Source: Endomychus coccineus (Eukaryota > Arthropoda > Insecta > Coleoptera > Endomychidae). From it: DNA of 64,000 nucleotides. The stretch lies in the NCBI GenBank assembly GCA_958510875.1, contig OY294070.1, forward strand, positions 119,826,703-119,890,702, written 5' to 3'. A model generated the notes under the pieces. That model made no database searches. It saw only the letters and a program-made list of their open reading frames with translations, and had not been told where the DNA came from. This document shows positions 11,776 through 63,505 of this stretch, one piece after another (position 1 is the stretch's first letter; each line of letters starts with the position of its first letter). The translations under genes and the position numbers were made by a program.

Positions 11776-14700
11776 AAATTCACAATTCTGCACATATGAA
11801 TCATTGCTCAATTGTCAAAACATTATTATTAGCTATTCTACATATTATTAATAACATTAGTCTAAATCTTAAAATTAATAAAAAACTGTATCTTATAATT
11901 ATATCCATCCCTTCGTTCTCTATTGTCTAACCTACCGTGGCCTACCTACCTTGTGCATTTGTCGTTGATCGGCCCCTCGACTTTGGAAGAGTGTCCCTGT
12001 GTTTTTCCCCAATAGTCTCAATGGATCCATACGTGAGAGACTTCAGTTGTAACAATATTGGAACTTTCATTTTAAATTCAGCCTATGAATTAAATCAGAT
12101 TCTATCTGTAAATAAAAATAATGTAAACTTTTTAATACTTCAACAAAATATTAGAAGTATTGATAAAAATCTTGATAAACTCAAATTATTTTTACATGAT
12201 CTAATAACTAAACTAATAATAAAAATTTTACAAATTATCCAGATTGCATAATACTGACAGAGATATATGTCCTTCACAATATAGATATCTATAAATTAGA
12301 GGGTTATAACATTATCTACAGCGAAGGCGATTTTAACAAATCAGATGGAGTTGTAGTCTACATAAAAAGCGGAATTAACTACAGCTATACAATGAGGAAA
12401 ATTGGTACTTCCATATTAATTGAATTAAATTTGATCTTTTCATGTAATAAAATAAAAATATATTCTGTATATAGGAGTCCTAATCCAGAATCCGACAAAC
12501 AAGCCTTCATCGATGATTTAAATATATTGCTAGAAGATCAAAAGCTAGACCAAACTGAATATACACTTTCAATTGGCGATATAAATTTTAATATATCAAC
12601 AAATGATAATAATTATACTAATGAATATTTGAACTTGATGGCCGAAAAAGGGTTCTCATCAACTATTAACAAACCAACGCGGGAAAATGCTTGCCTTGAT
12701 CACATATTTGCTAAAACAAAATCAATAAATATAGATTTCATCTTACCATTTGTTGTTCAGTGCGACATAACTGACCACTCTCTTTCGGGCTTACAAATAA
12801 TATACCCAAATAAACGAAAACCTACTCAGGTGCCAGTAACACAATTTAAAAAAATACTGAATAAAACTAATCTCCTACAGGAACTTCATTCAACATCATG
12901 GTACACTTTATATGAAATGGAAAACACCGATCTTCTAGCTGACTACTTCTTACATACACTACAAGACAAAATCGAAAAATGTTCCTCACATGTCAAAATA
13001 AAACCCATCGTGAAAAAGAAATGTTGGATTACTCAAGGGCTGATTAATTCAATCAATATAAAGAATAAACTCAGGCAACAACTACTCAAAAATCCTAACG
13101 ATATAAACTTAAATATTCGATACAAATATTACAGAAATACTATAAATAATTTAGTAAAAACAACTAAAACAAAATTTTATCAAAAACTCCTGGAAAAAGA
13201 CGCGAATAACACGAAAAATCTTTGGAACATTCTAAATTTAAGTACGGGCAGCAGTAAAGATATCAAAGAAATCCATTGCATTAAAAATAAAGACGGACAG
13301 TGTATTTATAGTAGCAGAGATATTGCAAATGCATTTAGCAATTATTATGCAGATATTGGACGCGAATTAGCAAACAAGGACCAAAATCAAGTCTTCCATC
13401 CCGACCATATAAGACACTCATCACATACGATGTTCTTATTTCCAACGGACATAAATGAAGTGACACACGTAATACATTCATTAAAAAATGGGACAGCTAA
13501 TGGACTGGACGTATCTCTGTTGATGTGCTAAAACATGTGTGTAGCGAAATTTCTGCTCCATAAACTTTTATAATAAACAACATAATGGAAAAGGGACAGT
13601 GTCCTACTCAATTCAAAAATGCTGTGGTTAAACCAATTTTCAAAAAAGGGGATAATTTAGAGATGGAGAATTACAGGCCAATCTCGCTAAGATCAAACAT
13701 ATCTAAATTATTTGAGAAAATTATAAAGAAAAGACTTACCTCTTACTTAACCATAAACAGGCTTCTATCGACCAAACAGTACGGTTTCAAAGAAGGTCAC
13801 AGCACCGAAGATGCGATTAATAACTTGATACCCAAGATCTATAACAGTCTAGACACTGGAAAAAAATCTATATGTGTATTCATCGACATAAGAAAAGCCT
13901 TTGATACGGTATCCCACGATTTATTATTAAAGAAAATGGAGATGATCGGTATTAGAGGCATTGTTCTTGATCTGATGAAGAGCTATCTTCGAGACAGAAA
14001 ACAATGTGTACTAATCAATAGTGAAAAGAGCGCTTTTAAGACAATTGATTGTGGAGTTGCCCAAGGAACAGTTCTTGGACCAATTTTATTCTTGATTTTT
14101 ATTAACGACTTACTTGAATTGGAAACTGAGGGTGATATCGCTGCATTCGCTGACGATAATGTCGTTTTTTATGAAGATGTTTCCTGGGTAAATCTAAAAA
14201 ATAAAATAGAGAATGATATGAAAATTATAATTGATTGGTATAAACATTACCTACTTACGCTTAACATCAGCAAAACAGTTTACTTACCCTTAACTACCCG
14301 TCTTCGACATATTAAAAATTCATAATACTGACTTAGCTATCAGATCTGTAACCAAAATCACATACCTCGGACCAACGATTGATCAACATTTACATTGATA
14401 AGAAGATTAAGATACCTCTTATACAAACTACGTTATATCAGAGACATTTTTGAAGGAAAGGACTTGAAAACGTTCTACTTCGCACTGGTCGAAAGTCATT
14501 TAACATATGCAATAACTGCCTGGGGAAGCATATGCAAAACCCAAGTACGTGACCTCAGTACTATGGAAAAGCGGATCTTAAAAATGTTATTTCGCAAGCC
14601 AACTAGATATCCTTCGGACAGATCATTCAGAGAACTACGTATTCTCGACATTAGACAATTGTTTTATTCGAAAGTTGCCATTAGGACACACTCTAGAACG

Positions 14701-51130: not shown

Positions 51131-51476
51131 AGACGGACTTTTCCACTTTGCAATTTAGCAATTATTCTATATAAATTCCTATCACTAGATCATATGAAAT
51201 CAGTAGGTATCGGGTCACTTGGGGCGGCCAGACAGAGAGCCTTATCAGATGTAGGCAACCAGTGATACACTCGTGCATGCGCGGTATGCCCAGACAGGTA
51301 TCGGTAAGTACTGACCCTGTATTACCGGCCTGGGTAGACGGTTAGGGTGTGGTCTCGCCTCTGACCTCTAGGTGTTACCGGGTAGACGGCTAGGGCTTGA
51401 TCGTTCAAGGTGGACAGCAAGCAATATGTGAGGTTAGGGATAACTTCAATGTAAAGCAGCATCAAAATATTTTTTT

Positions 51477-51543
51477 CTCCACACGGGAATCGAACCCGAG
51501 AAATGAAATCCAAAGCCGGCTCCTTAACCACTCAGCTATGGAA
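51477..51543 (-). repeat. tRNA-like sequence in left inverted repeat
   Basis: Mirror copy of the tRNA-like sequence at 63,158-63,224. One base differs (51,480), in the acceptor-like 3' strand. Pol III-type A and B boxes are retained. Confidence 0.55.
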
Positions 51544-51824
51544 GACTTGAGAATAAGCGATTTTAATATTGTAGATATAACCGCGGTGTATCCGGTCTGA
51601 GTGATAAGTGTGAGTATATTGCAGTCTATATGATGCAGGTAATTGTTTTACATGACGTTAGTCATGCAGGTATGTCACGAAGCGAGGTATGGAATGTGAG
51701 ACTTCATAGCGCTAGCCCATAGGGGTTTTGAAATAGTGTTGTTTGTACATGTCGTCAGTCACGTGATTTTTGAAAGAGACCGGGCATTCATCGGAGGTAT
51801 CATGGGAGGGCTGCTGTTCCTTGA

Positions 51825-52319
51825 ATGCATAGATGGAATGTTATATATAGTATAGAAATGATATCTTCTGCATCTCTCTCAAACGCGATGTTTATAAGGA
51901 AATTACTTTCAAAAACGTTTATTCAAGCTGTCTGTACCTTACTTGATTGCTATATTACAAAATGCGATTTCAATCATCTTAAACATATATGGAAATTATT
52001 TTTAGTATACAAAATGGAGTTGGGAGACTTCAATGGGGTATGGAATGTGAGGTTATACAGATTGTTTATGTATGACGTGAGTCATGTGAATTTGAATGAA
52101 GCTGGCGCGATCTCCAACGAGACAGGTGTGTATGTGAGGTTATACAGAGTGTGCAGGTATAATGATGTCTATCACGCAGGTCTTCAGCGAGGTATCTACC
52201 TTGCAGGAGCCTTCAATGAAATGTGGGGTTGTTTGTACATGCCGTTAGGCGCAGGGTTTTGTCTGAGTTATAATGATATCGTACGCGGCGCATTGTCTGC
52301 CCCCACAAGTCTTCAATAA
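51825..52319 (+). CDS. 164-residue open frame in left inverted repeat
   Basis: An open frame of unknown function, identical at protein level to the one on the minus strand at 62,382-62,876. The opening residues carry a moderately hydrophobic stretch, and later parts repeat a theme (VWNVRLYRL, VYVRLYRVC, YLAGAFNEMWGCLYMPLG). Part of its DNA recurs noncoding at 52,964-53,032 in the same repeat. The perfect identity only reflects inverted-repeat homogenisation, so it does not prove coding. It may be a real early-type gene present twice, or a chance frame. No family recognised. Confidence 0.35.
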   Translation: MHRWNVIYSIEMISSASLSNAMFIRKLLSKTFIQAVCTLLDCYITKCDFNHLKHIWKLFLVYKMELGDFNGVWNVRLYRLFMYDVSHVNLNEAGAISNETGVYVRLYRVCRYNDVYHAGLQRGIYLAGAFNEMWGCLYMPLGAGFCLSYNDIVRGALSAPTSLQ

Positions 52320-53237
52320 GGGGTCATAACATCTAACATGCGATAGTTTACAAAAATGCTGCTTCTCATAATAGCGATATTATGAAGCGTTTGCAGAAAT
52401 AACTATTAAATCATCTAAGGACTTTTTGCTTGATTAGAACTAGCGAGTACAAAATTCGTTATAATATTATAAGTATGTATCATTAGCTTACTTGTGCGAT
52501 AAGGTCGTGCTAAACCATGTCCAACAGCAATGTATTCAACTTGGAATTATCGTAATGATGCGCGCGATCCTTCAATGTTAAAGTAGTTTCATAAGTTATC
52601 CGAAAGTAATATGAATATATAAAATGTTTTTCCAAAATTAGTTCCGAAGTAAACATAATTCGCTATAATATTCATTCATGTATGTTACATAAATTATCCT
52701 ATATAATTCAAATAAGGTTGAACAATATTCACTATCATATTTTGCGGTAGAGCTACAGCTCGCTCGAGAGAGATAAGAAAGATACGCCGATCACCTTCAA
52801 ACGCGATGAGAATACTTTATTTTAAATCACACATATAGTATGTATATATTCGAATCATATTGATTGTAAATCGCATAATATGATCCGAAATCTAGCTGCT
52901 GCTGGGTGTAGCCCTATACAGAATGTAGACGAAGCGGTGTTACGCATCACGATGATTATTCGAACTGTCTGTACAGCTCGATTGCTATATAACAAAATAC
53001 ATTTTTTTTAATCATCTTAAACATATAGATGTGCTAATATAATTTTTTCAGTATACAAAAATATACTAATAAAACATTTTTCATCGACACACATTTCTTC
53101 ATAGGATAGTTGGCTTTTTATAAAATTCAATCAATTTCAATGGGAAACATATATGCGAGGGAGTTTTATAGAGATCGAACTCATTTCCCCAACCTCCCAA
53201 GAGGTAGAACTATGATGAGGAATAGATGTGGATAATA

Positions 53238-53760
53238 ACCATATGAATATCTTCATAAGCGCTAATCTATACGACATTCAAACACGTGCTTCATAAAAGT
53301 CTGAATATTGAGTAGAGCTATAGTATCTTCTTCATAAGCGATCATTATCATCATTCAGACACTTGTTTAGCACGTGATTCAACAGCCTGGCATCATCGTT
53401 CACGAACTATGATGGGCTGATGAGGAATAAAATACCAATAATAATTATATAAATATCTCCATTAGCAATCTGTACTATTTTCCTTCACGAGCACGACTTT
53501 TACAAACTCCATACGTTCGCGTAAAAGATTATAATGATAAACACATTTTTGTTCACGGGTTTACATAATCATATGAATATCTTCATAAGCGCTAATCTAT
53601 ATGACATTCAAACACATGCTTCATAAAAGTCTGAACATTGAGTAGAGCTATAGTATCTTCTTCATAAGCGATCATTATCAACATTCAGACACTTGTTTAG
53701 CACGTGATTCAACAAGCTGACATCATCGTTCACGAACTATGATGGTTCGATGAGGACTCA
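53238..53760. repeat. Partial tandem duplication inside left inverted repeat
   Basis: The segment with ATATGAATATCTTCATAAGC, then CATTCAAACACRTGCTTC, then CGTTCACGAACTATGATG occurs at 53,238-53,424 and again at 53,571-53,757. The right inverted repeat has it once (about 61,280-61,460). Confidence 0.8.
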
Positions 53761-54229
53761 AACATTGAACAGATGAATCTTTGAGGTTAAATATCTGCTG
53801 TAGAAATTACCCCACCTTTATTACCTTTTATTTGACAATATCGATATTTCCCATGTAACTAACCTAAAGCTATTTTGTATGCAACATTGTTATCATTTGC
53901 GAACCTTCGAGAAATTTGACTGGGGCTAAATGAATATGTTTGACTATTATTACCTGTAGATTTATTTGAGATTCTTCAAGTTTGAGATTGATAACCCACA
54001 TGAAGAAAGAAGCTTCAACGAATTGATATCAATGAATATTCGCTATTCTGAATGTGACAACTTTATCGGCTTCAACACTCGAGATAAGAGAGAATATTTA
54101 CCGCTGATGTAGGGAAAATCAATATGATGCATACAAATTGGGGGTGGGTGAGAACATCAGACTATAGCTTTATGTGTATCGAAATACATAAGGATTTTGA
54201 CGAGTAAGTGGTGTTTTATTGAATTGAAG

Positions 54230-54560
54230 ATCCGGCGACCATCGTTCACGAACGATGATGACGTCACTGCTTCATACCAATGACAGTAACTGATTCAATC
54301 CGGCGACCATCGTTCACGAACGATGATGACGTCACTGCTTCAAGCCAATGACAGTAACTGATTCAATCCGGCCACCATCGTTCACGAACGATGATGACGT
54401 CACTGCTTCAAGCCAATGACAGTAACTGATTCAATCCGGCGACCATCGTTCACGAACGATGATGACGTCACTGCTTCAAGCCAATGGCAGTAACTGATTC
54501 AACCCGGCCACCATAGTTTACGAACGATGATGACGTCATCATCGTTCATGAACTATGATG
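54230..54560. repeat. 68-bp tandem array with CRE-like palindromes
   Basis: Units start at 54,230, 54,298, 54,366, 54,434 and 54,502 (the last partial). Each has an interrupted palindrome CATCGTTC-AC-GAACGATG followed by TGACGTCA, the consensus ATF/CREB site. Units differ by only one to three bases except the last, so the array is young or homogenised. The same palindrome occurs singly in both inverted repeats (near 53,395, 53,729 and 61,295). Confidence 0.9.
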
Positions 54561-54649
54561 GCCAGATGAGGAATGAAATGCGAGTAATAATAATGTTTGT
54601 AATACATTCATGCACATGTTTTATCGCATGATTCAACACATGCTTTAAC

Positions 54650-55195
54650 ATTCAGACACGTGTTTCAACATTCAGTCACGTGTTTCAGCATTCAGACACG
54701 TGTTTCAGACACGTGTTTCAGACACGTGTTTCAGACACGTGTTTCAGCATTCAGACACGTGTTTCAGCATCCAGACACGTGTTTCAGACACGTGTTTCAA
54801 CATTCAGACACGTGTTTCAGCATTCAGACACGTGTTTCAACATTCAGACACGTGTTTCAACATTCAGACACGTGTTTCAGCATTCAGACACGTGTTTCAA
54901 CATTCAGACACGTGTTTCAGACACGTGTTTCAGCATTCAGACACGTGTTTCAACATTCAGACACGTGTTTCAGACACGTGTTTCAACATTCAGACACGTG
55001 TTTCAGCATTCAGACACGTGTTTCAGACACGTGTTTCAACATTCAGACACGTGTTTCAACATTCAGACACGTGTTTCAACATTCAGACACGTGTTTCAGC
55101 ATTCAGACACGTGTTTCAGACACGTGTTTCAACACTCAGACACGTGTTTCAACATTCAGACACGTGTTTCAACATTCAGACGCGTGTTCCAGCAT
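54650..55195. repeat. E-box satellite: 29 CACGTG sites in 20-bp and 13-bp units
   Basis: Units are variants of CATTCAGACACGTGTTTCAR (20 bp) and GACACGTGTTTCA (13 bp), mixed irregularly. I count 29 copies of CACGTG plus one CGCGTG. Three overlapping open frames run through it only because the unit lacks stops in every frame. It ends about 125 bp before the ATPase gene. Related degenerate units (CACTTGTTTAGCACGTGATT) are in the inverted repeats, suggesting the array grew from them. Confidence 0.92.
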
Positions 55196-55294
55196 TCATA
55201 CCTATTTAACATGTATTTGAAACCTAATTTTGAGAGAAGCGTAGAAGTACCTAACCGCGTGATCAGACATACACAATATAACATCATCAACTAG

Positions 55295-55302
55295 TATATA
55301 AA
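55295..55302 (+). promoter_or_regulatory. TATA box of ATPase gene
   Basis: TATATAAA, 18 bp before ATG 55,320 and 51 bp before ATG 55,353. A start of transcription about 30 bp downstream would skip the first ATG and favour Met12/13 (55,353/55,356). Confidence 0.5.
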
Positions 55303-55319
55303 CAAATGCTTATTAACAT

Positions 55320-56030
55320 ATGTTTCAGTATGATTTCGAATCGCCTTCAGGCATGATGAAGATTGTTAAGCAAAAAGACTCGTTGAGTATTATGAACTTA
55401 GGGTCAAGCAATGAGAATGTTGAACAACCACAACGTCACAGCTCTTTGCTGCCTAATACTCTACGAACAATAATCTGTGGTCCAAGTAATTGTGGGAAAA
55501 CAAATGTGATGTTATCTCTATTGTTAGATGCTAACGGCCTGAAATTTGAAAACGTGTACATATATTCAAAGTCTTTACACCAGCCAAAATACCAGTTACT
55601 AAAGGAGACATTGAAGAAAATTGAGGGGCTTGGATATTTTCCTTGTACCGAAAGTGATGAGGTCATAGACCCCACAGAAGCGAGGCCTAATTCGATAATA
55701 ATATTCGATGACGTGATGTTTGAGAAACAGCAGAAAATTCGTGCTTATTTTTCAAGAGGGAGACACAACTCAATTGATAGTTTCTATCTTTGCCAGTCTT
55801 TTGCTAAATGTCCAAAACATGGATTGCGCGACAATGCCAATTGCTTGATTATTTTCAAACAGGATGAGCTCAATTTGAAACATATATTCACCGATCATGT
55901 AAGTACCGACATGTCACTCGAAAAATTCAAAGAGATATGTAGCGTATGTTGGAAAGATAAATATGGATTCCTTATGATAAACAAAGACTGTGATATGAAC
56001 AAAGGTTTTGATAGTTATATATACATCTAA
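55320..56030 (+). CDS. A32/FtsK-HerA-type virion packaging ATPase
   Basis: A 236-residue P-loop NTPase of the kind that pumps DNA into capsids in Polintons, adintoviruses, virophages and larger DNA viruses. The Walker A motif is GPSNCGKT (residues 54-61) and the Walker B is SIIIFDD (125-131). The following RHNSIDSFYLCQSF (148-161) and CPKHGLRDNANCLIIF (164-179) match the family's sensor glutamine and arginine-finger region. Length is typical (about 220-280). It is intact, with no frameshift. The TATA box position suggests that ATG 55,353 may be the true start, which leaves all motifs in place. It is the first gene of the plus-strand block, 42 bp before the next. Family assignment is strong; subfamily is inference. 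Confidence 0.85.
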   Translation: MFQYDFESPSGMMKIVKQKDSLSIMNLGSSNENVEQPQRHSSLLPNTLRTIICGPSNCGKTNVMLSLLLDANGLKFENVYIYSKSLHQPKYQLLKETLKKIEGLGYFPCTESDEVIDPTEARPNSIIIFDDVMFEKQQKIRAYFSRGRHNSIDSFYLCQSFAKCPKHGLRDNANCLIIFKQDELNLKHIFTDHVSTDMSLEKFKEICSVCWKDKYGFLMINKDCDMNKGFDSYIYI

Positions 56031-56034
56031 CATG

Positions 56035-56042
56035 TATATATA
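56035..56042 (+). promoter_or_regulatory. TATA box of second structural gene
   Basis: TATATATA 31-38 bp before ATG 56,073, just after the ATPase stop. It implies a very short 5' leader. Confidence 0.5.
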
Positions 56043-56072
56043 CTTTCATTTGAAATAGACAACCCGCTCAGC

Positions 56073-57128
56073 ATGGACGTGGGTGTGAGTAACATGCTAA
56101 AGGAAAAACAACAATTGAAGAAAAAAATTTGGGAGTTAGCAAACGTTGTGAGGAAAAAATATATGGCTGTGAAATTGGGTAAAGCTGAAAATGATGAGAT
56201 TCTAGATAATATGTTCAGGAATGTATCTAAACCTCTGGAGGAAATTGCGAAAAATGCTGAAATAATCAAACAAAACTCGTTGGTTAAACCTAAAAGTATT
56301 GTTTCTACAGCAACACAAATGGAGAACATACCAATCCCAAATATTGTAACTGAAGGTGAAGAATTCGTATATAACCCCCAAGATACTGAGGAGGATGTGT
56401 TTACACCCGAACCTACTATCGATCAGATTCGTGAAGAATTCAGAAAACATAAGAAAGATAATGCAGCGGCTACAGAGGAGTTTCTGCAACAATACCCCAC
56501 ATTAGCACGTTATTACTTGGAAGGATTCCTATTGGATGATGATGTTAAGAGATATGATGATAAAATGGGTTTGCAATATAATTCAACTTTAGACAAATGG
56601 TTCATGGGTAATCAACCTATAGAAATTGATAGTGAGAGTAATATAATTATCAAGGGTACTCCGTTCAAAGGTACCACAGGACTGTATAATTTGATATTTT
56701 ACAGAGATGTTCTACCTGATACTTACACTGTGGAAGATGGGAAAAATTACAGTCAAATGATGGAAATGACCAGTGCCCATAGACGTAATAACGATCCAGC
56801 TGATCGAATAAGATACACAGTGAAATACAAACATGTACTGAAACCATTGATTAATTCCATGAAAAAACCCAGAGCCAAAACATACACTGGAAGTGCATAT
56901 ATCAAAAATGATATGCTTGAATATAACGAGAAACCTATCGAATATGTTTATTGGGATGACGTTAACGAAATTGTGGATAGACTGAGACTTCTTGTTGCAT
57001 CCTCGTATGCAGGTAACCATAATGAGATAATCTCTATAATAGAAGAATTGATAGAGGCAGGGGTAATTGAACAAAAACCAGGTGTAAGACAAATTCATCA
57101 CAGTTATAAAGATGGTTTCAATGGATAA
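56073..57128 (+). CDS. Conserved Polinton/adintovirus-type protein (DUF8207-like)
   Basis: An intact 351-residue protein, probably a virion or assembly component given its neighbours. Residues 1-65 are charged and helical (KEKQQLKKKIWEL, then RKKYMAVKLGKAENDEIL). 66-135 are low-complexity and acidic. 165-262 form a domain seen in many insect transposon-encoded proteins (DKWFMGNQPIEID, then GLYNLIFY, then NYSQMMEMTSAH, then YKHVLKPLI), which I associate with the family called DUF8207. The C-terminus has AGNHNEIISIIEELIEAGVI, also typical. Biochemical function unknown. The frame overlaps the next gene by 17 bp. The DUF name is from memory and should be checked with a profile search. Confidence 0.65.
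   Translation: MDVGVSNMLKEKQQLKKKIWELANVVRKKYMAVKLGKAENDEILDNMFRNVSKPLEEIAKNAEIIKQNSLVKPKSIVSTATQMENIPIPNIVTEGEEFVYNPQDTEEDVFTPEPTIDQIREEFRKHKKDNAAATEEFLQQYPTLARYYLEGFLLDDDVKRYDDKMGLQYNSTLDKWFMGNQPIEIDSESNIIIKGTPFKGTTGLYNLIFYRDVLPDTYTVEDGKNYSQMMEMTSAHRRNNDPADRIRYTVKYKHVLKPLINSMKKPRAKTYTGSAYIKNDMLEYNEKPIEYVYWDDVNEIVDRLRLLVASSYAGNHNEIISIIEELIEAGVIEQKPGVRQIHHSYKDGFNG
57105..57110 (+). promoter_or_regulatory. TATA-like box near fibre-like gene start
   Basis: TATAAA directly before ATG 57,112, inside the end of the upstream gene. It is too close for a normal leader at that ATG or at 57,121, so its role is doubtful. Confidence 0.25.
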
Positions 57129-57765
57129 GTTTGGCAGAGCCTCCTCTTCCATGTGGATATATGATACAAATGTATTTAATAATAATTTCAAACAAGTTCA
57201 CGGACAAGGATTATTCCTAACGAGCGATGGAAGTTATGATATGGAAAATCGTAGATTGTGCAACGTAAAATCACCGAATGATGATGGAGATGTTGCAAAT
57301 AAAGTATATGTTGATAAATTAACACACAAACTGAATCTGAAAACGGAAACCAGTCTTAAAGATACCTTCAATGTTAGGGTTGATAATTTGATCAAAGATA
57401 TCAACAAGGATCTGGATGAACATAACTTAACGAATGATAAGGTTATTCTCAACATTGATAAACATCTGATGGACATTCAGAATAAATATAATGAAATGGG
57501 AATCTATATAAAATCAGAGTATAAAACAATCAGTGATAGTGTGAGGGAGAACAGAAATGAATTGGAAGAGATCAATAACACATTTAACAGTATGAACATG
57601 CGTCTAAATGACATTACTAGTAAAGTGGAGGCGTTAGAACGACGGATGACATCTGTGGAACCTTCTAAGAAGAGACCTTCATCATCCACAACATCAAAGC
57701 AGGCCTCTGTGAAACGTATATCTCCAAATCCTGTGAATATACCCAAAAAATTAATTCTACACTAG
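57112..57765 (+). CDS. Fibre-like coiled-coil protein
   Basis: An intact 217-residue protein; Met 4 (57,121, MDKFGRAS) may be the real start. Residues 30-70 contain GQGLFLTSDGSYDMENRRL followed by NVKSPNDDGDVANKVYVDKL. This pattern (NRRL-N-V, D...A-NK-YVD) is characteristic of phage tail-fibre/spike N-terminal repeats and of insect adintovirus-like fibre proteins. Residues 75-185 show heptad-type spacing and are probably a trimeric coiled coil. The C-terminal 30 residues are basic and Ser/Pro-rich (SKKRPSSSTTSKQASVKRIS). Likely an attachment or vertex protein; the role is inferred from shape and context. Confidence 0.6.
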   Translation: MVSMDKFGRASSSMWIYDTNVFNNNFKQVHGQGLFLTSDGSYDMENRRLCNVKSPNDDGDVANKVYVDKLTHKLNLKTETSLKDTFNVRVDNLIKDINKDLDEHNLTNDKVILNIDKHLMDIQNKYNEMGIYIKSEYKTISDSVRENRNELEEINNTFNSMNMRLNDITSKVEALERRMTSVEPSKKRPSSSTTSKQASVKRISPNPVNIPKKLILH

Positions 57766-57988
57766 ATTACAACATTGATAAGATGAGTGAAAACAAGTTG
57801 TTCATGAGCTTCATGAGCACAGAAGAAAGAACTTTTACCAGCGTCGAACATACATAAAAGGACTTCAATATAGGTGGAAGGGGTAGGAATATACAATACG
57901 ACTAGGACGATGAATCAAGAGTCAAGATTGAGATATTTGGAACATATATTGTTAAGATTATACTTAAGTCTTTTGTATTGAGAAAATT

Positions 57989-57994
57989 AATAAA
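57989..57994 (+). terminator. Poly(A) signal after fibre-like gene
   Basis: AATAAA followed by a run of A, 224 bp after the stop. It would end transcripts of the first three genes. Confidence 0.4.
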
Positions 57995-58077
57995 AAAAAA
58001 AAATTATTTTGAGATCTTTGGTCTTCCTCCCACCCCTCGTTAAATAACGGTGCAATCTTGAATTCTCATCAGTCTGT

Positions 58078-58317
58078 ATGGAAGCGTGCGTGGAAGAAGT
58101 TGTTCTCAATACGCTTATAAACAAGCTCCCGATTGAACTTCAAATCAATACCAGGGGCAAAATTAGAAGAACGGTTGAGGAGATTCAGGGTATCAATTCA
58201 TTCGATAAAGCTTGCCGTCTACACGATATTTCATGCAATATAACACTTATAATTGTAGCCAGTTATATTTGGAATTCCTCTCTAACTCTTCAGTTGTGCT
58301 CGACTAACATTTATTAG
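58078..58317 (+). CDS. Small ORF with weak phospholipase A2-like motif
   Basis: 79 codons; TTAAATAA 30-37 bp upstream could serve as a TATA box. Residues about 38-52 read GINSFDKACRLHDISC. This resembles the catalytic D-x-x-C/A-x-x-H-D stretch of the small PLA2-like proteins of Polintons, adintoviruses and parvoviruses. The calcium-binding GPG loop that should precede it is absent, and the tail after HDIS differs, so the gene is probably a truncated or frameshifted remnant. It may equally be a chance match. Confidence 0.3.
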   Translation: MEACVEEVVLNTLINKLPIELQINTRGKIRRTVEEIQGINSFDKACRLHDISCNITLIIVASYIWNSSLTLQLCSTNIY

Positions 58318-58325
58318 TATATAGA
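58318..58325 (+). promoter_or_regulatory. TATA box of penton-like gene
   Basis: TATATAGA 29-36 bp before ATG 58,354, the spacing expected for a short-leader transcript. Confidence 0.45.
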
Positions 58326-58353
58326 TAGATTGTTGGTAAAGTTTTCATCAATC

Positions 58354-59096
58354 ATGTCTCAGACGTTCACTATCACGGGTAAGAGCTCCCGCTTATCTGT
58401 AGATTTTCACCCACCTATAGAACTAGATCCTCATTCATATTATTCTATAGCACTTGTTGGTTTGCATACGTACAATAGCATCCCGAACATTGAAGAAGGT
58501 TTTAATAAATTTTATTATGAAGATGTGAAGGGTGAGGAAAAAGTAGTCACTATACCTACGGGGTCCTACGAGTTGACAGACATCGAAGATTTCATACAAA
58601 GTACAGTTTGTGGGATAGGAGTGAAGCAAGAAGAGCGTGACCGGAAATTATCAATAAAATCTAACAACAACACTCTACACACAGAGCTGAAGAGTGATTT
58701 TAAAGTGAATTTTATTCCTAAAGATAGTATAGCGAACTGTTGGGATTCAGCAAAAAGAAATTGACATCTCGTGAACTACACGTATCTGATCGACCTATAA
58801 ACATAATCAAAGTTCAAACTATACGCGTAGAGTGTAACTTAACCGCGGGAGCATATTATAACAATAAGATAGCTCATACGATATATGAGTTCTCACCTCT
58901 TGTACCACGTGGGTTTTCCATTGATATAGAGCCGAAGAATCTTATTTATCTACCGGTCATCAGCAAGACGTCCTTCGATAACATCACACTGAATATTCTA
59001 GATCAGAATTGGAAACCGGTAAATTTTCGTGGAGAAGAAATTATTATACGATTGGAATTGAAAAAGATCGCTAGGGATTATGGCTCACAACAATAA
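58354..59096 (+). pseudogene. Penton-like minor capsid protein, single frameshift
   Basis: The start ATG 58,354 (MSQTFTITGKSS) is favoured over an in-frame upstream ATG (58,330) by the TATA spacing and a typical N-terminus. The first frame gives 136 residues with the pattern of Polinton/adintovirus penton (minor capsid) proteins: HSYYSIALVGLHTYNSIPNI and later IPTGSYELTDIEDFI. Sequence continuing the same domain (VSDRPINIIKVQTIRVECNL, then DNITLNILDQNWKPVNFRGE) is in the next frame down to the TAA at 59,094. The break is a one-base loss within about 58,725-58,742, so this copy makes no full protein unless slippage occurs. It is placed directly before the major capsid gene, as usual. Confidence 0.75.
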
Positions 59097-59097
59097 A
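59092..59097 (+). terminator. Poly(A) signal overlapping the penton-like stop codon
   Basis: AATAAA spans the stop TAA (59,094-59,096), a compact virus-like arrangement. Confidence 0.35.
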
Positions 59098-59176
59098 TAA
59101 TAATCCAATACTCACCACCACTCATTATATGAAAGGAATTCAACTGAGAAGGTTGCAGTAGCCATCACTTGAGAAT

Positions 59177-59392
59177 ATGGGTTTGGATTTTAGCAATAAA
59201 AGACATCTCCATAGTGGTCATCAGTCATTATCTACAACGAGCTCGAGGGAGAAGGTTGCTTCTGCATCACTGTCATTGAAGAAGGAGAAGGTTGCTTCTG
59301 CATCACTATCATTGGAAAATATAAATTTTTTGAAGTCCCTTGGTTACAATGTCGGAAAAACTTCAAATATTCAACGAGCCAAACTTCATTGA
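59177..59392 (+). CDS. Small ORF before the capsid gene with 36-bp repeat
   Basis: 71 codons from ATG 59,177, overlapping the capsid gene start by 44 bp. It contains two copies of an EKVASASLSL decapeptide encoded by a 36-bp direct repeat (59,249-59,320), and ends with NINFLKSLGYNVGK, a phrase that recurs (as FLKSLG-x-x-V) in insect adintovirus-like minor proteins. Function unknown. It could also be the capsid gene's leader only. Confidence 0.35.
   Translation: MGLDFSNKRHLHSGHQSLSTTSSREKVASASLSLKKEKVASASLSLENINFLKSLGYNVGKTSNIQRAKLH
59320..59325 (+). promoter_or_regulatory. TATA box of major capsid gene
   Basis: TATAAA 24-29 bp before ATG 59,349. Confidence 0.45.
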
Positions 59393-60551
59393 AGACATCA
59401 TCCGGGAAGAAACTCATACCTACTATCCACACACAACATCTTTTGGCAACAGCGATGAAATTGAGATATTAATCAATCAACAAGATGTGTTGGTAGATTT
59501 GGCATCGTCTGCTTTATTCATCGAGGCAGAATTCCAGCCAGAAGCAAGTGGTGATGGTGAATGTAAACTAACGAATAATTTCGGAGCGTTTCTCTTCGAA
59601 TATATTAGTTATGAATTGAATGGAAAAGAGATAGACAAAGTACGTGATCCTGGTATTGTTAGCACCATCAGAGCTCATCTAACATATGCCAAACATGAAT
59701 CTATACCTCTAGCTATTTCTGGATGGTCATTTAAGGATGCATTGAGTTCAGTCTACAATAATAAAATCAATTTATGGATACCGTTGAATTTTCTACTAGG
59801 CCTATTCATTGACTATAACAAAGTCTTGAGTGGAAAACATAAGCTGCGCTTGATAAGGTCTCGAACCGATAACGATTGTTATACCAATAGCACAGGTACG
59901 AAGAGGGCTAAAATAAATGTGAAGACGATAGCATTAAAAGTGCGACATGTGTTTCCAAGTGATCAGGTTAAATTTCAAATGTTGGAGAATTTGAGTGCTG
60001 AGAAGCCTATTTTGATTCCATTTCGCAGCTGGAATCTGCATGAAAATCCGTTGATGAAGGAGAGCACTCGTGACATTTGGGCTGTTAAAACATCAATGAA
60101 TTTGGAACGACCCAGATATGTGATTTTAGCTTTCCAAACTGATCGAAAAAATAATCCTGTTAAGCACAGTGCATATTTCGATAATATAAACTTGCTAAAT
60201 GTAAAATTATACTTGAATTCAGAGTGTTATCCATATGAAGCAATGAAATTGAATTTCACCGACCAGCAATACGTGGAAGCATACCAGATGTACTATGATT
60301 TCCAGAAATCATTTTCAAATAAAATAATAAGCGAACCCATGTTAGATTATATAGCATTCAAGAATAGAGCAATTTTTGTGATTGACTGTTCAAAACAAAA
60401 CGATGCTATAAAGTCATCAACAGTTGACGTCAAACTAGAGATGGAAAGTTTCCTGAATTTCCCCAAAAACACCAGGGTTTATTGCATCATCATTAACGAT
60501 CGTATAATGGAGTATTCTCCAATTACAGGATCAGTTCGGAGTTTAGTGTGA
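59349..60551 (+). CDS. Double-jelly-roll major capsid protein
   Basis: An intact 400-residue protein from ATG 59,349 (MSEKLQIFNEP); the frame also runs open to TTG 59,340. It matches the DJR major capsid proteins of insect Polinton/adintovirus-like elements, the family often labelled F54H12.2-like. Cues: TTSFGNSDEIEILINQQDVL near the N-terminus, FEYISYELNGKEIDKVRDPG in the first jelly roll, IPLNFLLGLFIDYNKVL (about residue 140), ERPRYVILAFQTDRKNN, NVKLYLNSECYPYEAMKLNF, and a C-terminal FVIDCSKQNDAIKSSTVDVK. The expected role is to build the icosahedral shell with the penton-like protein. Length fits this family's shorter members. AATAAA follows at 60,602. Confidence 0.8.
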   Translation: MSEKLQIFNEPNFIEDIIREETHTYYPHTTSFGNSDEIEILINQQDVLVDLASSALFIEAEFQPEASGDGECKLTNNFGAFLFEYISYELNGKEIDKVRDPGIVSTIRAHLTYAKHESIPLAISGWSFKDALSSVYNNKINLWIPLNFLLGLFIDYNKVLSGKHKLRLIRSRTDNDCYTNSTGTKRAKINVKTIALKVRHVFPSDQVKFQMLENLSAEKPILIPFRSWNLHENPLMKESTRDIWAVKTSMNLERPRYVILAFQTDRKNNPVKHSAYFDNINLLNVKLYLNSECYPYEAMKLNFTDQQYVEAYQMYYDFQKSFSNKIISEPMLDYIAFKNRAIFVIDCSKQNDAIKSSTVDVKLEMESFLNFPKNTRVYCIIINDRIMEYSPITGSVRSLV

Positions 60552-60601
60552 AGAACCATGAATCATAATGTTATTATTTTAATTCTAAATGTATTTTTCT
60601 A

Positions 60602-60607
60602 AATAAA
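60602..60607 (+). terminator. Poly(A) signal after capsid gene
   Basis: AATAAA 51 bp beyond the stop, then TTATT repeats. The stretch 60,608-60,864 has no gene. Confidence 0.45.
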
Positions 60608-62381
60608 TGTTATTATTATTATTTTTCGTATTTTATTTCTCTCACTTTCCCGCAAGACATCACAATAATGAACGAGCCATTTGGTAAAGTACAGTCCCTT
60701 GGATCAACCCATCAGGATTGTAATCTAAATTTTAAATATCGCTTCAGGTCTAGAAACAAAAATTTATGCAACTATCTAATTAATAAATATAAAAGTGATT
60801 CAGATTATTATGTTATCTTTTCAATTATTATAATATGTAGTACCTAGTGGTTATAAGACAGTTTGCTGTAAATATTCTCTCTTATCTCGAGTGTTGAAGC
60901 CGATAAAGTTGTCACATTCAGAATAACGAATATTCATTGATATCAAATCGTTGAAGCTTCTTTCTTCATGTGTGTTATCAATCTCAAACTTGAAGAATCT
61001 CAAATGAGTCTCTACAGGTAATAATAGTCAAACATATTCATTTAGCCCCGACCAACACACAGGCCCTCGTACGCTCCCAAATGATAACAATGTTGCATAC
61101 AAAATAGCTTTAGGTTAGTTACATGGGAAATATCGATATTCTCAAATAAAAAATGTGTTTATCATTATAATCTTTTACGCGAACGTATGGAGTTTGTAAA
61201 AGTTGTGCTCGTGAAGGAAAATGTACAGATTGCTAATGGAGATATTTATATAATTATTATTGGTATTTTATTCCTCATCAGCCCATCATAGTTCGTGAAC
61301 GATGATGCCAGGCTGTTGAATCACGTGCTAAACAAGTGTCTGAATGTTGATAATGATCGCTTATGAAGATACTATAGCTCTACTCAATATTCAGACTTTT
61401 ATGAAGCATGTGTTTGAATGTCATATAGATTAGCGCTTATGAAGATATTCATATGATTATTATCATTATCCACATCTATTCCTCATCATAGTTCTACCTC
61501 TTGGGGTGGTTGGGGAAATGAGTTCGATCTCTATAAAACTCCCTCGCATATATGTTTCCCATTGAAATTGATTGAATTTTATAAAAAGCTAACTATCCTA
61601 TGAAGAAATGTGTGTCGATGAAAAATGTTTTATTAGTATATTTTTGCATACTGAAAAAAATTATATTAGCACATTTAATCATTTAAGATGATTAAAAAAT
61701 GTATTTTGTTATATAGCAATCGAGCTGTACAGACAGTTCGAATAATCATCGTGATGCGTAACACCGCTTCGTCTAGATTCTGTATAGGGCTACACCCAGC
61801 AGCAGCTAGATTTCGGATCATATTATGCGATTTACAATCAATATGATTCGAATATATACATACTATATGTGTGATTTAAAATAAAGTATTCTCATCGCGT
61901 TTGAAGGTGATCGGCGTATCTTTCTTATCTCTCTCGAGCGAGCTGTAGCTCTACCGCAAAATATGATAGTGAATATTGTTCAACCTTATTTGAATTATAT
62001 AGGATAATTTATGTAACATACATGAATGAATATTATAGCGAATTATGTTTACTTCGGAACTAATTTTGGAAAAACATTTTATATATTCATATTACTTTCG
62101 GATAACTTATGAAACTACTTTAACATTGAAGGATCGCGCGCATCATTACGATAATTCCAAGTTGAATACATTGCTGTTGGACATGGTTTAGCACGACCTT
62201 ATCGCACAAGTAAGCTAATGATACATACTTATAATATTATAACGAATTTTGTACTCGCTAGTTCTAATCAAGCAAAAAGTCCTTAGATAATTTAATAGTT
62301 ATTTCTGCAAACGCTTCATAATATCGCTATTATGAGAAGCAGCATTTTTGTAAACTATCGCATGTTAGATGTTATGACCCC

Positions 62382-62876
62382 TTATTGAAGACTTGTGGGG
62401 GCAGACAATGCGCCGCGTACGATATCATTATAACTCAGACAAAACCCTGCGCCTAACGGCATGTACAAACAACCCCACATTTCATTGAAGGCTCCTGCAA
62501 GGTAGATACCTCGCTGAAGACCTGCGTGATAGACATCATTATACCTGCACACTCTGTATAACCTCACATACACACCTGTCTCGTTGGAGATCGCGCCAGC
62601 TTCATTCAAATTCACATGACTCACGTCATACATAAACAATCTGTATAACCTCACATTCCATACCCCATTGAAGTCTCCCAACTCCATTTTGTATACTAAA
62701 AATAATTTCCATATATGTTTAAGATGATTGAAATCGCATTTTGTAATATAGCAATCAAGTAAGGTACAGACAGCTTGAATAAACGTTTTTGAAAGTAATT
62801 TCCTTATAAACATCGCGTTTGAGAGAGATGCAGAAGATATCATTTCTATACTATATATAACATTCCATCTATGCAT
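62382..62876 (-). CDS. 164-residue open frame in right inverted repeat
   Basis: Protein identical to that at 51,825-52,319. Both copies run from the element's outer end towards its interior. No family recognised; see the left copy for doubts about coding. Confidence 0.35.
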   Translation of the reverse strand: MHRWNVIYSIEMISSASLSNAMFIRKLLSKTFIQAVCTLLDCYITKCDFNHLKHIWKLFLVYKMELGDFNGVWNVRLYRLFMYDVSHVNLNEAGAISNETGVYVRLYRVCRYNDVYHAGLQRGIYLAGAFNEMWGCLYMPLGAGFCLSYNDIVRGALSAPTSLQ

Positions 62877-63157
62877 TCAAGGAACAACAGCCCTCCCATG
62901 ATACCTCCGATGAATGCCCGGTCTCTTTCAAAAATCACGTGACTGACGACATGTACAAACAACACTATTTCAAAACCCCTATGGGCTAGCGCTATGAAGT
63001 CTCACATTCCATACCTCGCTTCGTGACATACCTGCATGACTAACGTCATGTAAAACAATTACCTGCATCATATAGACTGCAATATACTCACACTTATCAC
63101 TCAGACCGGATACACCGCGGTTATATCTACAATATTAAAATCGCTTATTCTCAAGTC

Positions 63158-63224
63158 CTCCATAGCTGAGTGGTTAAGGAGCCGGCTTTGGATTTCATTT
63201 CTCGGGTTCGATTCCCGTGTGTAG
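63158..63224 (+). repeat. tRNA-like sequence in right inverted repeat
   Basis: An A-box-like TAGCTGAGTGGTTAAGG and a B-box GGTTCGATTCC lie at tRNA spacing. Acceptor-like strands (CTCCATA with TGTGTAG) pair at six of seven positions, a Ser-type D-stem GCT/AGC and a four-pair T-stem can form, and T residues/A-rich DNA follow. The anticodon stem does not pair, so this is not an ordinary tRNA. It may be a Pol III promoter or tRNA mimic. Confidence 0.5.
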
Positions 63225-63505
63225 AAAAAAATATTTTGATGCTGCTTTACATTGAAGTTATCCCTAACCTCACATATTGCTTGCTGTCCACCTTGAACGA
63301 TCAAGCCCTAGCCGTCTACCCGGTAACACCTAGAGGTTAGAGGCGAGACCACACCCTAACCGTCTACCCAGGCCGGTAATACAGGGTCAGTACTTACCGA
63401 TACCTGTCTGGGCATACCGCGCAGGCACGAGTGTATCACTGGTTGCCTACATCTGATAAGGCTCTCTGTCTGGCCGCCCCAAGTGACCCGATACCTACTG
63501 AAATC

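What the first reader, a model, noticed from the sequence alone, without database searches (positions are those of the whole stretch)
51196..63505. Polinton-type element that carries only virion genes
Ends AG...CT, a perfect 6-bp duplication GAAATC and a gene set of packaging ATPase, fibre-like, penton-like and DJR capsid proteins place it with Polintons/adintoviruses. None of the replication or integration genes (PolB, integrase) or the protease is visible in 12.3 kb. The ends are intact, so it moved as this reduced unit. A capsid-only Polinton derivative with mobilisation-competent ends is unusual.
Basis: partly seen in the sequence, partly recalled or inferred. Interest (0 to 1): 0.9.

Follow-up and report, generated by a model that had tools for sequence, protein, structure and literature searches.

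The report
Polinton remnant with only capsid genes
An insect-type virus-like jumping element sits in this genome with clean ends and its shell-building genes, but no genes to copy or insert itself were found, and one shell gene is broken in the sequence given.

Summary
A 12,298-bp element lies at 51202-63499, flanked by a perfect 6-bp duplication (GAAATC). Its ends are AGTAGG...CCTACT and its inverted repeats are 2.9 kb (left) and 2.6 kb (right). Between them, all on the + strand, are an A32-type packaging ATPase, a DUF8207 protein, a weakly fibre-like coiled-coil protein, a penton and a double-jelly-roll capsid protein (PF21738, E=4e-87; the folded model confirms the fold). None of the 38 ORFs of 60 aa or more gave a listed Pfam match to PolB, rve integrase or adenain/Ulp1 protease.

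Three corrections. The penton gene is frame-broken in this sequence. Clean ends do not prove that it moved as this reduced unit, because an internal deletion after insertion leaves the same ends. The repeats are two-tiered: 0.39% different in the outer 1.8 kb, 2.4-4.7% further in, with gaps.

Best reading: a non-autonomous, defective Polinton/adintovirus derivative that relied on a helper's PolB and integrase. Rivals: deletion after insertion, or one part of a split genome. Animal-virus genomes with such virion genes but no recognisable PolB/integrase are already reported (PMC11071296, passages). The deciding test, other copies or a helper in the host genome, could not be run: the genome search failed in eleven calls.

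The parts
51196..51201 (.). left target-site duplication GAAATC
63500..63505 (.). right target-site duplication GAAATC
51202..54104 (+). left terminal inverted repeat (outer 1.8 kb nearly identical to the right copy; inner part diverged, with a 275-bp stretch lacking in the right copy)
60865..63499 (-). right terminal inverted repeat
54230..54538 (+). 68-bp tandem repeat, 4.5 copies
54631..55198 (+). tandem repeat of about 20 bp, 30 copies; 54217-55200 holds 29 CACGTG motifs (a regulatory role is inference)
55320..56030 (+). A32-type packaging ATPase, 236 aa, open frame, Walker A GPSNCGKT
   Evidence: PF04665, 5e-6; for the Walker A match; no significant PDB relative by sequence
56073..57128 (+). 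DUF8207 protein, 351 aa, open frame; insect relatives
   Evidence: 120 of 120 listed relatives carry PF26634; best-scoring 40% identity; not listed in the direct Pfam scan; model mean pLDDT 77.8, pTM 0.51, no significant PDB match
57112..57765 (+). fibre-like protein, 217 aa, coiled coil with a short tail-fibre-like N-terminal stretch
   Evidence: weak
58102..58317 (+). short ORF; phospholipase-A2-like motif recognised from memory only, looks eroded
   Evidence: no Pfam or PHROG family
58354..59096 (+). penton gene, broken: the N-terminal part (ORF 58330-58764) and the C-terminal part (ORF 58728-59096) lie in different frames
59340..60551 (+). [quoted passage not shown]
   Evidence: PF21738 3.9e-87; 461 relatives, best-scoring 54% identity; fold

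Best explanation
A non-autonomous, defective derivative of an insect Polinton/adintovirus. It keeps what a helper needs to act on it (both termini) and the virion-assembly module, but lacks PolB, integrase and protease. Inferred mechanism: a helper's protein-primed polymerase copied it from its inverted repeats, the helper's integrase inserted the linear copy with a 6-bp duplication, and the element supplied or shared capsid proteins; it behaved much like a defective-interfering genome with long terminal repeats. After insertion it began to decay (penton frame break). Shown: ends, duplication, gene content, no recognisable replication or integration family, penton break in the sequence given. 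Inferred: an ancestor that had those genes, the helper, movement as this unit, packaging.
For: Exact duplication and near-identical outer repeats. Virion-gene set. No PolB, rve integrase or protease family listed for any of 38 ORFs of 60 aa or more. Little room outside the genes and repeats: the left repeat edge to the ATPase is 1,216 bp, mostly minisatellite, and the capsid gene to the right repeat edge is 314 bp. If the ancestor was an ordinary Polinton, the losses follow function: copying, inserting and protease genes gone, the virion-type genes and both termini kept. The capsid copy matches 58 of 62, and the DUF8207 copy 40 of 42, columns conserved in at least 90% of relatives, so decay is recent or slight.
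Against: No second copy and no helper was seen: none in the rest of the window, and the host genome could not be searched. Clean ends fit a deletion after insertion equally well. The penton break suggests that this copy is decaying. The conserved-column match only shows that little time passed; in both alignments the window copy is slightly below the median at the 90% threshold, and at 0.39% repeat divergence few mutations are expected anyway.
Confidence: 0.5

Rival explanations
1. An ordinary full-length Polinton inserted here and later lost PolB, integrase and protease by internal deletion; the reduced form never moved.
For: Most Polinton loci are degraded: 96% of 3,511 vertebrate loci had lost coding capacity (PMC8097293, passages). 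The penton is broken. Ends and duplication would look the same.
Against: The virion-type genes and both long repeats survive in full extent; in vertebrate Mavericks PolB and integrase lie in different modules on different strands, so a single deletion would not remove both there. The order in insect relatives was not tested.
Confidence: 0.3
2. A part of a split (bipartite) Polinton genome: this part carries the virion module, a partner with the same terminal repeats carries PolB, integrase and protease.
For: Clean division by function and repeats of 2.6-2.9 kb. Segmented viruses with an adintovirus-type PolB exist among the bidna-like viruses (PMC11071296, PMC8363768, passages).
Against: No partner seen; the host genome could not be searched for one. 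The three Drosophila-associated adintoviruses of PMC8363768 are single contigs of 13.3-14.6 kb.
Confidence: 0.08
3. It is autonomous with a replicase that is not recognisable (for example within the DUF8207 protein or the ORF in the repeats), or it recruits host polymerases.
For: No function is known to me for DUF8207 and its model has no significant PDB match; PMC11071296 raises unrecognised replicases and host-recruited replication as options for other viruses.
Against: DUF8207 relatives seem to share contigs with capsid genes (at least three shared contig lengths), so it looks like part of the virion module; no polymerase, helicase or primase family reaches its Pfam cut-off in the scans of 38 ORFs.
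Confidence: 0.07
4. Assembly artefact: an internal segment was collapsed or lost during assembly.
For: Kilobase-scale near-identical inverted repeats and minisatellites are hard to assemble; no reads were available.
Against: No Ns in the window, different flanks on the two sides with the same 6-bp duplication, and the two repeat copies differ from each other, so they are not one copy used twice.
Confidence: 0.05

Closest known systems
Polintons / Mavericks (autonomous; 15-30 kb by PMC8504770, passage)
   Same: 6-bp duplication, terminal inverted repeats beginning AGTAGG (one letter from the (AGT)2 end reported for vertebrate Mavericks, PMC8097293), packaging ATPase, DJR capsid protein, minor capsid protein
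   Different: No PolB, no rve integrase, no protease found; 12.3 kb, of which about 5.5 kb is repeat
Drosophila-associated adintoviruses 1-3 (PMC8363768, passages)
   Same: Capsid and packaging ATPase genes, similar overall length (13.3-14.6 kb there)
   Different: Adintoviruses 1 and 2 there carry PolB, integrase and protease; none found here
Animal 'meldviruses' with adenovirus-class virion proteins but no recognisable PolB/integrase (PMC11071296, passages)
   Same: Virion module without PolB and integrase in an animal
   Different: The one detailed in the passages (Meld19810) carries another replicase (Prim-S2H) and a tyrosine recombinase; none was found here
Polinton-like viruses (PLVs)
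   Same: DJR capsid; mostly no pPolB/rve integrase (PMC11071308, passages)
   Different: PLVs encode other replication proteins; none found here; beetle relatives and the 6-bp duplication point to Polintons proper

Membership tests
Polinton / Maverick | terminal inverted repeats with 6-bp target-site duplication | tested here: met
Polinton / Maverick | DJR major capsid protein | tested here: met
   PF21738 3.9e-87; model pLDDT 91.2 matching PBCV-1, Sputnik and mavirus capsid proteins, best 4e-15
Polinton / Maverick | minor capsid (penton) protein | tested here: inconclusive
   57% and 61% identity of the two parts to P0241, but none of the 42 relatives bears a Pfam domain or a telling name, the profile has no significant PDB match (best 0.062) and no fold was made; the name 'penton' rests on recall of insect Polintons. 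The gene is frame-broken
Polinton / Maverick | A32/FtsK-type packaging ATPase | tested here: met
   Pox_A32 26.6 bits, cut-off 22.8
Polinton / Maverick | protein-primed PolB | tested here: not met
   no Pfam match listed for 38 of 38 ORFs >= 60 aa; no motif set
Polinton / Maverick | rve integrase | tested here: not met
   same scans
Polinton / Maverick | adenain/Ulp1 cysteine protease | tested here: not met
   same scans
[quoted passage not shown]
Adintovirus (definition in PMC11071296) | Hexon reciprocally recognisable by BLASTp | not tested
   reference adintovirus hexons were not at hand; no relative listed is labelled as an adintovirus
Non-autonomous mobile element | several copies of the reduced form at different sites, and an autonomous helper with the same ends | not testable with these tools
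   The genome search unreachable (eleven calls); no second copy inside the window

The most novel reading that the evidence does not exclude
A bipartite Polinton: the virion module on one integrating segment and PolB/integrase/protease on another, both ending in the same long repeats, so that the two must meet in one cell (or one particle set) to complete a cycle.
Probability: 0.08. Interest if true: 0.85.

Novelty: new variant of a known kind. Interest (0 to 1): 0.38.

Why it matters
If reduced copies like this recur, animals carry Polinton derivatives that specialise in virion proteins and depend on others for copying and insertion, which would bear directly on whether Polintons behave as viruses with helpers, satellites and defective genomes. 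As a single decaying copy it is an ordinary fossil with an unusually clean functional split.

Tried and rejected
Relatives with genomic context: the capsid protein and its alignment, the DUF8207 alignment, the ATPase and the penton alignment were sought in viral contigs and the capsid alignment in genome contigs; none of the six scans gave a relative, so no neighbouring gene order could be compared. The scans start from short conserved peptides, and the collections are IMG/VR and bacterial/archaeal genomes, so this says nothing about insect genomes. No positive control was run. The phage collection gave one match at E 0.9.

tRNA gene in the repeats: the outer repeats hold box-A/box-B-like letters (51480-51550; my reading), but ARAGORN found no tRNA in the window and Rfam none in the window at gathering score; in 51202-55300 at E<=1 it gave three weak microRNA matches and no tRNA. 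Rejected.

Programmed frameshift in the penton: considered because PMC11071296 suggests it for some pentons near the 3' end. Here the break falls mid-gene (the N part aligns to residues 1-130 of the 246 of P0241, the C part to 130-240), 42 of 42 relatives listed are continuous proteins of 205-251 aa (the search admits only 79-252 aa), and there is no in-frame X XXY YYZ heptamer in 58690-58764. A mutation or a sequencing error is likelier.

DUF8207 fold: mean pLDDT 77.8, pTM 0.51; 35 PDB matches with E<=10 and none with E<=0.001; no function assigned. A paper search for DUF8207, PF26634, PF21738 or 'double jelly roll-like' gave nothing.

Papers: passages only were seen, of nine papers: PMC11071296, PMC11071308, PMC8097293, PMC8363768, PMC12567637, PMC10675110, PMC2836005, PMC6431247, PMC8504770. 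The adintovirus proposal paper by Starrett et al. is not held under the DOI tried and was not seen. Ten paper searches were made; in the listings, which are capped, I saw no title or abstract start that names a virion-only Polinton; the other papers listed were not opened, so this does not show that none is in print.
Full report
What is there. The element spans 51202-63499 (12,298 bp). Directly outside its ends lies the same hexamer, GAAATC, at 51196-51201 and 63500-63505; the ends read AGTAGGTATCGG and CCGATACCTACT. The window has no N. Neither the left repeat, the minisatellite stretch nor the core recurs in the rest of the window (blastn and tblastx at E 1e-3; blastn again, and tblastn of eight ORFs at E 1e-2). 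Of the 36 ORFs of 100 aa or more listed for the rest of the window, 10 were scanned: seven show reverse transcriptase, endonuclease, hAT or MULE matches and three show none. The surroundings look like ordinary transposon-rich animal DNA.

The repeats. The outer 1,808 bp differ at 7 of 1,806 aligned positions with one gap; the next 541 bp differ at 13 of 534 with six gaps; a 275-bp stretch is present only on the left; the last 279 bp differ at 13 of 274 with three gaps. Leaving out mismatches within 6 columns of a gap, outer against second block is 7 of 1,806 against 12 of 534 (Fisher P = 0.0002); second against last block does not differ (12 of 534 against 8 of 274, P = 0.63). Counts in the inner part depend on the aligner (one search gives other gaps there). 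If the repeats had been identical throughout at insertion, divergence should be even. So either only the outer part was kept identical by replication (or by later gene conversion), or the inner part is an older, unequal extension. Long terminal repeats that grow inward by copying one end onto the other would be one way to lose a terminal gene module; this is inference.

The genes. From left to right, all +: packaging ATPase (Pox_A32, 26.6 bits against a cut-off of 22.8); a protein whose relatives carry DUF8207 (243 relatives at E<=1e-3, 120 listed, best-scoring 40% identity; the direct scan did not list the family); a fibre-like protein (weak: PHROG tail-fibre families at about 5e-4 over residues 35-72, otherwise coiled-coil matches); a short ORF that recalls a phospholipase-A2-like protein, without any family match; the penton in two frames; the DJR capsid protein (PF21738, 292.9 bits). 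The capsid model has mean pLDDT 91.2 and pTM 0.89; 193 PDB chains match at E<=0.001, led by PBCV-1 and Sputnik capsid proteins, with mavirus at rank 20. By sequence the capsid protein has no significant PDB relative. It has 461 relatives at E<=1e-3, best-scoring 54% identity; of the 120 listed, 16 rows name an organism, nine taxa in all, and all nine are Coleoptera. Named DUF8207 relatives are from Popillia, Trachymyrmex, Cataglyphis and Diachasma, which I know as a scarab, ants and a braconid wasp. The host is therefore probably an insect, perhaps a beetle; this was not established.

The module seems to belong together. Of the 42 penton relatives, 10 have the same longest-contig length as one of the 120 listed capsid relatives, and one of these lengths (9,638) also appears for the best DUF8207 relative. 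Equal contig length is only a hint; no gene order was seen.

What is missing. One search lists 38 stop-to-stop ORFs of at least 60 aa overlapping the element; all 38 were scanned against Pfam (9, 10, 10, 9; five of those were given from a start codon). PolB, rve integrase and adenain/Ulp1 do not appear in the lists (E up to 10, up to 1 in the others; one list was cut at 25). A motif scan of the six frames found the ATPase's Walker A and scattered single matches, no PolB or integrase motif set. There is little room outside repeats and genes: 1,216 bp, mostly minisatellite, before the ATPase, and 314 bp after the capsid gene; a PolB gene of some 3 kb (size recalled) would not fit. Fragments shorter than 60 aa were not tested by profile.

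State of decay. The N-terminal penton part matches residues 1-130 of P0241 at 57%, the C-terminal part residues 130-240 at 61%, in different frames: the gene is broken, by mutation or by a sequencing error. The other four main genes are open. The capsid copy matches 58 of 62, and the DUF8207 copy 40 of 42, of the columns that are at least 90% conserved in the others, ranks 16 of 41 and 11 of 50 from the worst, slightly below the median in both. With 0.39% outer repeat divergence only about ten substitutions would be expected in the 5.2-kb core, so open frames are no proof of selection since insertion (my arithmetic).

How it most likely worked. A helper Polinton's PolB would start at the termini and copy the linear unit, and the helper's integrase would insert it with a 6-bp stagger; the capsid genes would be expressed for shared particles. 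The functional split (termini and virion module kept; copying, inserting and protease functions absent) is what a trans-dependent genome would look like. I put 0.5 on the trans-dependent unit, 0.3 on deletion after insertion, and smaller shares on a split genome, an unknown replicase and an assembly fault.

Regulatory-looking repeats. Upstream of the ATPase lie a 68-bp repeat (4.5 copies) and a repeat of about 20 bp (30 copies). CACGTG occurs 29 times at 54217-55200, 36 times in the element and 4 times in the rest of the window; TGACGTCA 5, 6 and 0 times. They could be enhancer or origin elements; untested.

Against the literature (passages only). Intact vertebrate Mavericks have 6-bp duplications, (AG)3 or (AGT)2 end motifs and two gene modules, one with PolB, ATPase and PZ, the other with integrase, minor capsid, PW, major capsid and protease (PMC8097293). 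Here the ATPase lies with the capsid genes on one strand, a different order. The Drosophila-associated adintoviruses 1-3 of PMC8363768 are 13.3-14.6 kb; 1 and 2 encode PolB, integrase, capsid, protease and FtsK. PMC11071296 reports genomes with adenovirus-class virion proteins that lack recognisable PolB and integrase, and uses the name meldvirus. So the absence itself has precedent; an integrated copy with clean ends and no replacement replicase is the variant here.

Verdict. Real, correctly delimited, and correctly read as a Polinton derivative with virion genes only; overstated as mobilisation-competent. Interest 0.38, because one decaying copy cannot tell a helper-dependent lineage from a deletion.

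Noticed in passing
54217-55200: Minisatellite arrays with 29 CACGTG and 5 TGACGTCA motifs directly upstream of the ATPase gene; 4 and 0 in the window outside the element.
   Followed up: partly
51202-54104 and 60865-63499: Two-tier inverted repeats: outer 1.8 kb 0.39% different, inner part 2.4-4.7% with many gaps.
   Followed up: yes
51480-51550 and the mirrored stretch 63151-63221: tRNA-like box A/box B letters in both repeats (my reading); ARAGORN and Rfam call no tRNA.
   Followed up: partly
51825-52319 and 62382-62876: A 164-aa ORF in each repeat copy, no family above its cut-off.
   Followed up: partly
59245-59316: 36-bp tandem duplication in a short ORF just before the capsid gene.
   Followed up: no
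12212-14325: Non-LTR retrotransposon pieces: weak endonuclease match (1.4e-4, below cut-off) followed by reverse transcriptase (1.3e-34).
   Followed up: partly
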